Source: Candidatus Altimarinota bacterium | Lineage (GTDB): Bacteria > Patescibacteriota > Gracilibacteria > BD1-5 > UBA6164 | Direction: 5' to 3' | Length of the DNA stretch: 64,000 nt | NCBI GenBank assembly: GCA_030683605.1 | Contig: JAUXPL010000001.1 | Span: 1 to 64,000 of the forward strand | Shown here: one piece after another, positions 7,406-56,588 of the stretch | Numbering within the stretch: the stretch's first letter is position 1 | How the letters are laid out: every line of letters starts with the position of its first letter | The notes under the pieces: generated by a model | The model's input: the letters and a program-made list of their open reading frames with translations, nothing else | The model's database searches: none | Told to the model about the DNA's origin: nothing | Made by a program: the position numbers and the translations under genes

Positions 7406-7948
7406 ATGTCAAGAATTGGTAAATTACCTATTGTAGTACCAGGAAATGTTGAAATTACTTTGGCTAACAACAATATTAAAGTAAAATGACCAAAAGGAGA
7501 ATTATCATTTGATTATTCTGCTAAGGTTGAAATACTTAAAGAAGAAAACAATTTAATTGTTAGACCTTTAGATGATACTGCAGGTGCTTTATGGGGAACG
7601 ACTAGAGCTATAGTTAGTAACTTAGTTATTGGAGTTTCAGAAGGTTATAGTAAAAGTTTGGAAATCATTTGAGTTGGTTACAAATTTGAAATTACTTGAG
7701 ATAAGCTTACTTTAAGTATAGGTTTATCACATAAAGTTGATATGATTGCTCCAGCTTGAATCAAAATCGAAATGGATGAAAAAGCTAAAAATATAATGCA
7801 TATATCTGGTGCTGATAAACAATTAGTATGAGAATTTGCATCTAAAATTAGAGCAAAAAAGAAACCTGAACCATATAAAGGAAAATGAATTAAATATGTT
7901 GGAGAACATGTTGTTAGAAAAGCAGGTAAAACTGGTTCAAAAAAGTAA
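7406..7948 (+). CDS. rplF: Ribosomal protein uL6
   Basis: uL6 (180 aa, full length), two-fold repeat protein near the factor-binding site. SRIGKLPIVVPGNVEIT starts it, LWGTTRAIVSNLVIGVSEGY lies near residue 70, and the C-terminal KKKPEPYKGKGIKYVGE stretch with TGA glycines is a family hallmark. ATG at 7406, 70 bases after rpsH. Confidence 0.95.
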
Positions 7949-7974
7949 AAATTTAACTTATAATAATTTTAAAG

Positions 7975-8319
7975 ATGTTACACAAAACATTAAAAAGATT
8001 AAGAAGAAAAAATAGAATAAGATCAAAAATAAGTTGAACTGAATTAAAACCTCGTTTAGCAGTATATAGAAGTAATACTAACATATATGCACAACTTATT
8101 GATGACACAGCTTGAAAAACTCTTACATCTTTTTCAGATTTAAAACTAGATAAAGCTGGTACTAAAACAGAAATGTCTAAAAAAGTAGGTGAAGAAATGG
8201 CAAAAAAAGTTCTTGATTTAAAAATCACTGAAATAGTGTTTGATAGAGGTGGATTTGCTTATCATGGTAGAGTTAAAGCTTTAGCTGAAGCTTTAAGAGC
8301 CTGAGGACTAAAATTTTAA
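7975..8319 (+). CDS. rplR: Ribosomal protein uL18
   Basis: uL18 (114 aa) binds 5S rRNA. The order [41 protein letters not shown] and the C-terminal [27 protein letters not shown], each shown here in part, follows the family closely. ATG at 7975. Standard order uL6-uL18-uS5. Confidence 0.95.
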
Positions 8320-53471: not shown

Positions 53472-53730
53472 TGAATACTCAAATTATAAATATAGTATCA
53501 TTTTCAATTTTGTAAATAATTCTCTATTTAAAAGCTGGTTCAATAATTTCTCTAAGATTAAATCAATTTCAATTCTGTTTTCATAACATAGGAAAAATAG
53601 CTAAATAATTGATAAAGTTAAAAATAGTTTCTTGTACTTTTATAGCTACTTGCAAATTATCAACACTTATGTAATCAAATATCTCATTAATGTCATTTAA
53701 AGATGAAGGTCTATATATTATTTTGTACAT
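53452..53730 (-). pseudogene. RelE/ParE-type toxin broken by an in-frame TAG
   Basis: Starts at ATG 53730 (MYKIIYRPSSLNDINEIFDYI) and reads to FNLREIIEPAFK, then a TAG at 53524-53526. The frame continues with RIIYKIENDTIFIIGVFKNKNLY to a TAA at 53452-53454. The family has Y-R-I-I-Y-K here, so a single change TAT/TAC to TAG removed the last 24 residues, including strands of the active site. The 68-aa product should be inactive. TAG is a normal stop in this genome (for example rplC), so readthrough is not expected. Confidence 0.8.
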
Positions 53731-53885
53731 AATACTTTTTCTCTATGTTTTAATAGTTCCATATATAATTCAGCAGGTGTATATCATCAATCTTCTCATA
53801 AAGCATTATCTATATGTTTTATTTCTTCAAATGTATATCAAGATTCTTTGAAAGAATCTATTTGAGATTTATCTAAGTTATTCAT
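53718..53885 (-). CDS. Antitoxin of the broken pair
   Basis: 55 aa, MNNLDKSQIDSFKESGYTFE with Gly from TGA and a Glu-rich C-terminus. It overlaps the toxin start by 13 bases, as in the intact pair at 35.9 kb, though the sequence is different. Likely neutralises the toxin; now possibly without target in this copy. Confidence 0.65.
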
Positions 53886-53931: not shown

Positions 53932-55083
53932 TTAATTATTTACAAGTTCTTTAATTCTTTTTTCAAATTTACTTAGAGAGAATATTTCTGCTTGAGATTT
54001 ACAAGCATCTATAGTATAAGTTCAGTTAATATTATTTTGGTTAAATTTTTCGAATTTTTCTATGAAATCTACACCATTTTTGTCATCGAAAAATTCACCT
54101 GTGATTCATTCTACTACTGTTTCTAATAATCATCCGCATCTATATGCAAATACAGGTTTACCTGCTGCCATTACTTCTACTGGTACAATTCAGAAGTCTT
54201 CTTCACCAGGAAATATTAGTCACAAACTATTTTGTACCAAAAATACCAATTCGTCATCATATTTCGCTCATGTGAAGATAATATTTGTATTTGCATTTTT
54301 CTTCAGAGTATTTTCATAGTCTCATTTTCATATTATTAGTAGTTTATGATTTGGCATTTTATTAAATCATTGTATTGCTACTTCTATTTTTTTGAATTCT
54401 GTTAATGCTGAAATTATGATATAATATCACTCTTGAATATCTTGTATTTGACTTGATAGAGGAGCTTTTGTTCATAGTTTACCAAATCTATTTGTTTCTA
54501 CTGGTGGGTATAATATTTCAGAATCTTTTCTATAATATTTATTGATTCTTTGTTTTGTATTATGTGAGTTAGCGAGAGTTATATCTGCTCTTTTAGATGC
54601 TATATAATCCCATTGTCTTAGCTTCAAAAATAATTTATTTATGATTATTCATAGAGTGTATTTTTTGATACCAGAATTTAGTCCTAAATCTCTTTTGTAT
54701 TCATTTGTCCAGTCCCACATATATCTAGCAGGGGAATGACAATAAACTATGAATTTCGTTTCAGGTTTTGTAATAGCTCCATGAGCAAATCAGCTAGAAC
54801 TACATAATACTACATCATAATCAGAAAAATCTAGCTGTTCAATAGAAATAGCCATAAATGCTAGACAGAGCCTTTGTTTTTTTGTATATTTATATATTTT
54901 TTGAGATTTCAAATCAAATACTTGTGTATTTATTTTGTTTTTTGGAAATACTTTTCATACTTTTTCTTCATCATAAATCAGAGTAAATATATCTGCATCT
55001 GGAAATATTTTGCACCAGTTTTCTACTACTTTTTCAGCTCAACCAAGCTTAATAAACATTTCATGAAGTATTGCTATTTTCAC
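53932..55083 (-). CDS. Glycosyltransferase family 4 (GT-B) protein
   Basis: 383 aa. KIAILHEMFIKLGGAEKVVENW is the N-terminal GT4 pattern, FIVYCHSPARYMWDW and ANSHNTKQRINKYY follow, and IFTGAKYDDELVFLVQNSLG plus LIFPGEEDFGIVPVEVMAAGKPV form the nucleotide-sugar block, with the E-X7-E pair (EDFGIVPVE). Transfers a sugar, probably mannose or a related one, in surface polysaccharide or glycoprotein synthesis. GTG at 55083 is the start; no ATG lies before the conserved N-terminus. Confidence 0.88.
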
Positions 55084-55167
55084 TTTTGTATTAGTTATGG
55101 AATAGATTATTCACTATAAATATAATTATTTTTTGTAAAAAATGAATTTTATGTTAAAATTTCACAA

Positions 55168-55195
55168 AAATAATTAGTAATTAATTTATATTATG
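55168..55195. repeat. 28-bp direct repeat, left copy
   Basis: Identical to 55614-55641. It contains AAATAATTAGTAATTAATTT and ends with the ATG of the MNT gene. Flanks the MNT/mini-HEPN module. Confidence 0.8.
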
Positions 55196-55498
55196 AAAAA
55201 TAATGTTTTAGATTTTCTGAAATCTGATGAAGTAAAATCTACTTTAAATAAATATTCTATTAATCATTTGTACTTATTTGGTTCTTATTCTAGATGACAA
55301 GAGACTAAATGAAGTGATTTAGATTTGTTAATTGAATATGATAGATCTAAATATAAAATTACTCTTTTTGATTTGGTTAAAATAGAAGAATATTTTAAAA
55401 ATACATTTTGAGTTAGTAGTGTAGATTTTGTAACAAAAAAATCAATTAAACCAAATTTAAAAAAATATATAGAGAAAGATTTAATAAAAATTTATTAA
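55193..55498 (+). CDS. MNT-type nucleotidyltransferase (MntA-like antitoxin)
   Basis: 101 aa. LYLFGSYSRGQETKGSDLDLLIEY holds GSYSRG and the SDLDL acid pair of the polymerase-beta superfamily, and VDFVTKKSIKP carries the third site. Such proteins AMPylate and silence a HEPN toxin (MntA-HepT). Here the neighbour is a shortened HEPN remnant whose ATG overlaps the stop by one base. Start codon lies in a 28-bp repeat shared with the next operon. TGA codes three glycines. Confidence 0.85.
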
Positions 55499-55623
55499 TG
55501 AGATGATTAAGAAATAGAATTACTCATGATTATATGGGACTAGATTGTGAAATATTGTGGGATACAATAGTTGTAAGTATACCTGAATTGAAAAAAGTAA
55601 TTCAAGAATACCTAAATAATTAG
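55498..55623 (+). pseudogene. Truncated HEPN (HepT/DUF86) toxin, 41 aa
   Basis: MRGLRNRITHDYMGLDCEIL and WDTIVVSIPELKKVIQEYL match the C-terminal third of DUF86 proteins, with the catalytic R-X4-H-X-Y set (RNRITHDY). A full protein is about 110 aa, so roughly 70 residues at the N-terminus are missing. ATG overlaps the MNT stop. The TAG stop lies inside the right 28-bp repeat. It may be a deletion remnant, or a short functional piece; the motif is intact. Confidence 0.7.
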
Positions 55624-55641
55624 TAATTAATTTATATTATG
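55614..55641. repeat. 28-bp direct repeat, right copy
   Basis: Identical to 55168-55195; ends with the ATG of the first pilin gene (55639) and begins inside the mini-HEPN reading frame. Distance between copies is 446 bp. Confidence 0.8.
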
Positions 55642-56205
55642 TTTAAAAAAATATTTACATTTATGTTTATATTCATAGTTTCAGGTTATTTTAGTGTTTT
55701 TGCAGTTTGAGAAAAAGATGCTTATTATAATACATTAAAAACTGTTAATTGATATGAATCAGCTATAAAAAATGCAAAAAATGAAACTGAAAAAGCTGAA
55801 ATAAAAAGAGCATATGATGCTTATAAATCAAGTAATGATATAGATTCATTAAAAGAAGCTTATGATAATTCAGCAGAATCACAAGATGATATAACTAGTA
55901 GATGATTTACTATAAGTGTAGACGATGTTTCACCAGGTATGTGAGTATCTTGAACTACAACCAAAGAGAATGTTAATTATTTATTATGAACAATTATTCA
56001 AAATTTGATGATAGCATTATGAAGTTTAGCATTATTAATAATGACTGTATGAGCTTGATATATTTTGCTTCATCATTGAGAAGATGAATTATTGAGCAGA
56101 TGAAAAAATATATTTATGTCTTGAATATATGCATTAGTAATTGCTCTTAGTTCTTATTATTTAATATCAATTGTTAGATATTTACTTTATTTTTGAGATA
56201 ATTAA
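55639..56205 (+). CDS. VirB2-like pilin with extra N-terminal domain
   Basis: 188 aa. Signal peptide (MFKKIFTFMFIFIVSGYFSVFA), then a 90-residue charged, helical part (YESAIKNAKNETEKAEIKRA), then the two membrane helices with the loop HHGEDELLSRGKN. The extra domain sets it apart from the three shorter paralogues that follow. First gene of a five-gene cluster, with start codon in the 28-bp repeat. Possibly a structural or adaptor subunit of a type IV secretion/pilus system (inference). Confidence 0.75.
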
Positions 56206-56213
56206 TAAAATTT

Positions 56214-56588
56214 ATGTTTAAAAAATTTTTAACAATAACTATATATTTTTTATTAAATAGTTATACATATGCAGCAGCACCAACATTAAATTGTGTTGGA
56301 TTACCTGGATGTGTTGATTCAGATATCATGAATCCTACTAATCCAAATATATCTGATAATATTTGAGCAATGTTGATATCAAGTATAATATGAGAATTAA
56401 TTCAATATGTAGCAGCAATAGCTGTATTAGCACTTATAATTAGTTGAATTATGTATTTATTATCATGATGAGAAGAAGAAAAAACTAAAAAAGCAAAATC
56501 TTGGATTACTTGGTCATTGGTTTGAGTTTTGGTTTCTATATCAGCTTGGTGAATAATAAATGTTTTGAATAATATATATATATTTTAA
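56214..56588 (+). CDS. VirB2/TrbC-like pilin
   Basis: 124 aa. Signal peptide ending SYTYAAA, Cys pair in NCVGLPGCVDS, helix IGELIQYVAAIAVLALIISG, loop SGGEEEKTKKAKS and second helix ITWSLVGVLVSISAWGIINVL. Starts 8 bases after the previous pilin gene. Cys pair suggests a disulfide in the mature N-terminus. Confidence 0.8.

What the first reader, a model, noticed from the sequence alone, without database searches (positions are those of the whole stretch)
55168..55641. MNT/mini-HEPN module bounded by perfect 28-bp direct repeats
The two repeats are identical over 28 bp, 446 bp apart. Each ends in the ATG of the following gene, so the leader and start region of the pilin operon appears duplicated around the module. 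Insertion by recombination at a leader, or capture of a promoter by the module, would give this. It also means that recombination between the repeats could delete the module cleanly and restore the pilin leader.
Basis: partly seen in the sequence, partly recalled or inferred. Interest (0 to 1): 0.7.

Follow-up and report, generated by a model that had tools for sequence, protein, structure and literature searches.

The report
Stowaway gene pair in pilin leader
A tiny antitoxin gene plus the stub of its toxin has been inserted between the promoter and the start of a pilin operon in a Gracilibacteria-type bacterium, duplicating the 28-base leader so that the pilin gene kept its own start; similar long duplications flank about one in fifteen related gene pairs in other genomes, which may be a trace of how such pairs spread.

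Summary
Two identical 28-bp repeats (55168-55195, 55614-55641) flank an MNT gene and a 41-codon HEPN remnant, and occur nowhere else in the genome at up to 3 mismatches. Two of the four other species held from the genus have the empty site: G004 and G002 carry the same promoter and a single leader straight before the pilin. Copy 1 therefore keeps the ancestral promoter flank and copy 2 the ancestral pilin flank: an insertion of 418 bp with target duplication. Only the leader was duplicated, not the promoter. Copy 1 supplies the MNT start codon; copy 2 supplies the HEPN stop codon and the pilin leader. The MNT keeps GSX10DXD and the HEPN stub keeps RX4HXY, but the stub lacks the first two thirds of the domain: probably a dead toxin beside an intact antitoxin. 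Of 183 MNT-HEPN modules, 12 have exact flanking repeats of 20-95 bp, against 0 of 1091 mismatched pairs and 4 of 885 same-size placements elsewhere in the same loci. In four cases beyond the window copy 1 is the neighbour's own 3' end or terminator; one has an empty site in relatives. How the insertions happen is not shown. MNT-HEPN mobility was known; I found no report of the long duplications or recurrent stubs.

The parts
53932..55083 (-). Divergent glycosyltransferase (383 aa), conserved left neighbour of the pilin operon
   Evidence: PF00534/PF13692 above cut-off; orthologue next to the pilin in most family members
55133..55160 (+). Predicted extended -10 promoter of the pilin operon (TTGTAA-16-TAAAAT, TG before -10), left of copy 1 only
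   Evidence: the surrounding 46 bp are identical in G004 and G002 and the motif recurs in the same intergenic region across the family
55168..55195 (+). Repeat copy 1: pilin leader plus ATG, in its ancestral place behind the promoter; its ATG is the MNT start codon
   Evidence: 23 of 28 bases identical to the single leader of G002
55196..55613 (+). Inserted segment proper, 418 bp: MNT codon 2 up to within the last codons of the HEPN remnant
   Evidence: absent from the orthologous site in G004 and G002
55193..55498 (+). MNT antitoxin-like nucleotidyltransferase, 101 aa, GSX10DXD motif intact
   Evidence: PF01909 53.1 bits (cut-off 21), PF18765 44.1; NCBIfam MntA 40 bits, below its cut-off of 60; motif columns invariant
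55498..55623 (+). HEPN/HepT remnant, 41 aa, starts at a native internal Met, keeps RNRITHDY (RX4HXY); last two codons and stop lie in copy 2
   Evidence: PF01934 42.2 bits over positions 83-119 of 120; nearest full-length relative in G026 has 109 aa
55614..55641 (+). Repeat copy 2: HEPN stop codon, then pilin leader and pilin ATG
55639..56205 (+). First pilin gene of a run of T4SS-pilin-like genes (further ones at 56214, 56588, 57000)
   Evidence: PF18895 weak on this gene, above cut-off on the next three; matches in 45 of 49 genomes

Best explanation
A compact MNT-HEPN (type VII toxin-antitoxin-like) unit was inserted into the 5' leader of the pilin operon in this species, and the 28-bp target was duplicated. 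Shown: single-copy empty site in two congeners, ancestral flanks on the two copies, no promoter duplication, one insertion unit. Inferred: the insertion came from DNA capture at a staggered break, or from a replication fork that left the template, copied the module and rejoined 28 bp behind; no transposase is encoded. The duplication made the insertion tolerable, because the pilin keeps its leader and ATG and is read through from the same promoter. Inferred: the HEPN part, lacking the first helices and the dimer surface, is not toxic. The MNT survives as an orphan antitoxin, which may neutralise related HEPN toxins or may be decaying.
For: Repeat unique in the genome. Empty site with a 46-bp identical promoter stretch in G004 and G002, single leader, no MNT or HEPN hit there. 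HEPN covers profile positions 83-119 only, whereas relatives of the MNT are mostly followed by full HEPNs. The genome's other MNT-HEPN pair also has a broken HEPN, frameshifted. Modules elsewhere show the same architecture: 12 of 183 with exact flanking repeats of 20-95 bp. In several of these, copy 1 is the neighbour's own 3' end: tatD in L206, the gene before thrS in G492 (single copy, directly followed by thrS, in G382 and G361), a terminator in L113 whose second copy is only half a hairpin. HEPN dimerisation and part of the active site use helices 1 and 2 (PMC11586414), which are missing here.
Against: No reads or strains of the same species were available, so recent excision or insertion polymorphism is untested. 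G004's leader is diverged, so the exact ancestral 28 bp is inferred mainly from G002 (23 of 28). Only 5 genus members are held, and in G001 and G003 the region is rearranged or broken. The HEPN ORF is intact with a neat TAATG overlap, which could mean it is expressed and selected. Some flanking repeats in the survey may be local repeats: L010 has pilin-like genes on both sides, L264 carries a hairpin. Counted per locus rather than per placement, the control contrast is not significant (9 of 181 against 3 of 100 loci).
Confidence: 0.72

Rival explanations
1. The 28-bp repeats are attachment sites: the module is a minimal integrative element moved in trans by a tyrosine recombinase, with attL and attR at gene ends.
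For: Direct repeats of 27-95 bp at gene 3' ends or leaders look like att cores; tatD 3' end in L206 and the gene 3' end in G492.
Against: No integrase in the 418-bp insert; the repeats differ completely from module to module and vary from 20 to 95 bp, whereas one integrase uses one core; the window's target is a leader, not a gene end.
Confidence: 0.12
2. The two leaders were made alike by gene conversion or selection after the module arrived, rather than by the insertion itself.
For: AT-rich leaders are alike in this genome; the second pilin has an 81% similar leader.
Against: The identity is 28 of 28 and starts and stops abruptly; the same pattern recurs around unrelated targets where the second copy has no use, such as coding fragments of tatD or half a terminator.
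Confidence: 0.06
3. The MNT plus 41-aa HEPN stub is a working derivative: the stub, which keeps the RX4HXY substrate motif and a translation-coupling overlap, is a substrate, decoy or regulator for the MNT, now co-expressed with the pilin.
For: Comparable MNT-abutting C-terminal stubs in L006 (G076), L133 (G173), L240 (G429, ATGA overlap) and an in-frame MNT-stub fusion in L137 (G187); breakpoints cluster just before the motif. HEPN domains fused to MNT are often catalytically inactive and domesticated (PMC3710099).
Against: No close homologue of this stub exists in the genus, so selection cannot be measured; the internal Met is native, so an ORF is expected by chance; decayed intermediates (frameshifts, stops) are common; the mirror case, HEPN cut at the C-terminus, also occurs (L136, L212).
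Confidence: 0.2

Closest known systems
Class I HEPN/MNT (HepT/MntA, type VII toxin-antitoxin; Shewanella SO_3166/SO_3165; PMC7641770)
   Same: Gene order MNT then HEPN, PF01909/PF01934 pair, GSX10DXD and RX4HXY motifs present
   Different: HEPN lacks about the first 70 residues; both NCBIfam models score below their cut-offs; no own promoter; located in a pilin operon
MNT-HEPN insertion polymorphisms in Deinococcus and Thermus (PMC2701414)
   Same: MNT-HEPN module present in one species or strain and absent from the syntenic site of another
   Different: The term 'direct repeat' does not occur in that paper's main text; the present case shows a target duplication that preserves the neighbour
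HEPN-MNT of Legionella pneumophila (PMC11586414)
   Same: MNT without the long C-terminal helix; the tyrosine of the RX4HXY loop is the AMP acceptor
   Different: There the HEPN is full length and uses helices 1-3 for dimer and tetramer formation, which the stub here lacks

Membership tests
Class I HEPN/MNT toxin-antitoxin (type VII) | MNT with GSX10DXD | tested here: met
   GS at 30-31, DLD at 42-44 of the 101-aa protein; columns invariant in the alignment
Class I HEPN/MNT toxin-antitoxin (type VII) | HEPN with RX4HXY | tested here: met
   RNRITHDY; PF01934 42.2 bits
Class I HEPN/MNT toxin-antitoxin (type VII) | Adjacent genes, MNT upstream | tested here: met
   1-nt overlap TAATG
Class I HEPN/MNT toxin-antitoxin (type VII) | Full-length HEPN domain (four helices, about 110 aa or more) | tested here: not met
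   41 aa, profile positions 83-119 of 120; the shared part aligns to residues 90-128 of HepT in the PDB
Class I HEPN/MNT toxin-antitoxin (type VII) | RNase toxicity neutralised by AMP transfer | not testable with these tools
   needs expression and an adenylylation assay
Insertion sequence or transposon | Encoded transposase and terminal inverted repeats | tested here: not met
   The 418-bp insert is filled by the two ORFs; no inverted repeat listed pairs its two ends
Insertion with target duplication (general) | Single-copy empty site in a relative, with the repeat's outer flanks matching it on both sides | tested here: met
   G004 and G002
Integrative element | Site-specific recombinase acting on a conserved att core | tested here: inconclusive
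   No integrase in cis; repeat sequences differ between modules; an enzyme in trans cannot be excluded

The most novel reading that the evidence does not exclude
Small toxin-antitoxin units, MNT-HEPN above all, spread through Patescibacteria and others by a transposase-free route that duplicates 20-95 bp of the target, mostly at gene ends, so that the neighbour gene survives; after insertion the toxin is often cut down to its C-terminal stub carrying the AMP-acceptor motif.
Probability: 0.33. Interest if true: 0.75.

Novelty: new variant of a known kind. Interest (0 to 1): 0.5.

Why it matters
How toxin-antitoxin pairs move without any transposase is an old open question. A recognisable scar, a long target duplication that leaves the neighbour gene intact, makes single insertion events identifiable and testable against empty sites. 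The window is a clear case of it and also shows a toxin-antitoxin unit captured into a surface-appendage operon, where its expression is tied to the pilin. The recurrent loss of the toxin's N-terminal part next to an intact antitoxin shows one path by which such modules decay or are tamed.

Tried and rejected
(1) Common leader hypothesis: rejected, no other copy at up to 3 mismatches in the genome. (2) A conserved 'mini-HEPN' family: not supported; the nearest relative (G026) and most others have full-length HEPNs, stubs are scattered independent deletions. (3) A bias towards N-terminal rather than C-terminal HEPN loss: suggestive counts only, with detection bias; not claimed. (4) A VanZ-like gene in G000 contig 54 (L138 7465/8156, 34-bp repeats overlapping a gene end and terminator) as a second case in the same genome: not clean, since G004 has a different downstream gene. 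(5) Diversity-generating retroelement reading of the G492 repeat (a reverse-transcriptase gene lies next to it): set aside, because the copies are identical over 72 bp and relatives have a single copy followed by thrS, but not formally excluded. (7) A further empty-site search for G303 found no orthologous site in its family. (8) Literature searches for direct repeats or target duplications around toxin-antitoxin modules found nothing equivalent; subscription papers are not held.

Full report
WHAT IS THERE. The genes here read only with TGA as glycine, as in Gracilibacteria and Absconditabacteria; the genome G076, of the same order, appears to be a named Candidatus Gracilibacteria MAG (L160, the same 16,691-bp contig length as G076:C85). 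Between a glycosyltransferase on the minus strand (53932-55083) and a run of T4SS-pilin-like genes (from 55639) lie two identical 28-bp repeats, AAATAATTAGTAATTAATTTATATTATG, at 55168 and 55614. Between them are an MNT gene of 101 codons and a HEPN fragment of 41 codons that overlap by one base (TAATG). No third copy exists in the genome at up to three mismatches and shuffles give none.

THE EMPTY SITE. The glycosyltransferase-pilin neighbourhood is conserved through the family. In G004, the closest relative (glycosyltransferase 91% identical), the intergenic space is about 110 bp; in G002 it is about 190 bp. Both have no MNT and no HEPN hit. A 46-bp stretch with an extended -10 promoter (TTGTAA-16-TAAAAT) is identical in all three, and the promoter motif is recognisable across the family. 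Downstream of it G002 has one leader of the same length, 23 of 28 bases identical to the repeat, ending in the pilin ATG. Copy 1 thus has the ancestral left flank and copy 2 the ancestral right flank: 418 bp were inserted and 28 bp of target were duplicated. The promoter was not duplicated. The insert begins at MNT codon 2 and ends in the last codons of the HEPN; copy 1 gives the MNT its ATG, copy 2 gives the HEPN its last two codons and stop.

THE GENES. The MNT matches PF01909 at 53 bits and keeps GSX10DXD; its family in relatives is well conserved. NCBIfam names the nearest models MntA antitoxin and HepT toxin, both below their cut-offs. The HEPN covers PF01934 positions 83-119 of 120; the corresponding part of the family aligns to residues 90-128 of solved HepT. 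It keeps RX4HXY, the motif whose tyrosine is adenylylated by MntA (PMC7641770). In the Legionella HEPN the dimer surface and the residues Q44 and E47 of the active site lie in helices 1 and 2 (PMC11586414), which are gone here. The full-length relative in G026 (61% identical over the shared part) has 109 residues. The genome's second MNT-HEPN pair (contig 54) has a frameshifted HEPN. So the likeliest state is two intact antitoxins and no working HEPN toxin of this family. That step is inference.

OTHER STUBS. MNT directly followed by only the C-terminal part of HEPN was also found in L006/L160 (G076), L133 (G173) and L240 (G429, ATGA overlap), with an in-frame MNT-stub fusion in L137 (G187) and a shorter deletion in L018 (G070). 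They are isolated cases among mostly full-length HEPNs, so recurrent deletion is the simplest reading. Retention of the AMP-acceptor motif in all of them leaves a decoy or substrate role open.

IS THE REPEAT ARCHITECTURE GENERAL? I collected 183 distinct MNT-HEPN modules with flanks, from Patescibacteria and from the named loci. Twelve have an exact direct repeat of 20 bp or more between the 250 bp upstream and the 250 bp downstream (lengths 20, 27, 28, 28, 30, 32, 34, 34, 43, 47, 72, 95). Pairing upstream and downstream flanks from different modules gives 0 of 1091, longest 15. Same-size placements elsewhere in the same loci give 4 of 885, from three loci (Fisher p about 4e-7; with doubtful cases removed, 9 of 181, p about 4e-5; counted per control locus, 3 of 100, not significant). 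The placements overlap each other, so these p values are optimistic. In several cases the target is recognisable: the last codons of tatD (L206), the last 72 bases including the stop codon of a gene that in G382 and G361 is followed at once by thrS (G492), the 3' end of a ferredoxin-like gene (L285) and the right arm of a terminator whose second copy lacks its left arm (L113). L195 has two adjacent modules, each with its own different repeats of 43 and 47 bp. L206 also has a ParE/RelE-like pair between 29-bp repeats. Doubtful: L010 (pilin-like genes on both sides) and L264 (hairpin-rich repeat).

MECHANISM. Shown: insertion, target duplication, no encoded mobility gene, position behind the pilin promoter. 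Inferred: the DNA was captured during repair or replication, either by filling in a staggered break or by a fork that switched template and rejoined 28 bp behind. Variable duplication length and unrelated targets argue against one transposase or integrase. Selection probably keeps the cases where the neighbour is unharmed, which a duplication ensures. Several other modules have upstream sequence of their own between repeat and MNT; here the module has none and must use the pilin promoter.

COMPARISON AND VERDICT. MNT-HEPN mobility, including strain-specific insertions, was described in 2009 (PMC2701414), without mention of direct repeats. The window is a well-supported instance with a visible scar and a truncated toxin. 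I regard it as a new variant of a known kind, of moderate interest by itself and of higher interest if the long target duplication proves to be a common route.

Noticed in passing
L206 2084-2648 (JACQLN010000014.1, Parcubacteria group): A small antitoxin-like gene and a ParE/RelE-like toxin gene lie between exact 29-bp direct repeats just upstream of a leucyl-tRNA-synthetase-like gene, a second cassette with its own repeats about 1 kb from the MNT-HEPN cassette.
   Followed up: partly
L195 1406-3182 (PFLF01000052.1, Roizmanbacteria): Two adjacent MNT-HEPN modules, each flanked by its own different direct repeats (43 and 47 bp), followed by a third, HEPN-first pair.
   Followed up: partly
L241 438-1901 (G492): A decayed MNT-HEPN lies between 72-bp repeats copied from the 3' end of the upstream gene; a reverse-transcriptase gene sits next to it. 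Congeners G382 and G361 have one copy followed by thrS.
   Followed up: partly
G000 contig 54 (L138), 1190-1825: The genome's other MNT-HEPN pair: MNT intact, HEPN split by a frameshift and stop.
   Followed up: yes
window 53524-53885, minus strand: A ParE-like toxin gene with a small partner gene between the glycosyltransferase and an O-antigen-ligase-like gene, another toxin-antitoxin pair about 1.3 kb from the module and without flanking repeats.
   Followed up: partly
G000 contig 54 (L138), 7465-8189: A VanZ-like gene between 34-bp repeats that overlap a gene end and terminator; the G004 orthologue of the upstream gene has a different downstream gene.
   Followed up: partly
L141 (G000 contig 2), 7452-15453: Dispersed G+C-rich hairpin repeats (CCCTCCCTAATTTTAGGGAGGG and variants) in an AT-rich genome, REP-like; a similar hairpin-bearing stretch sits in the G002 glycosyltransferase-pilin spacer.
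   Followed up: no
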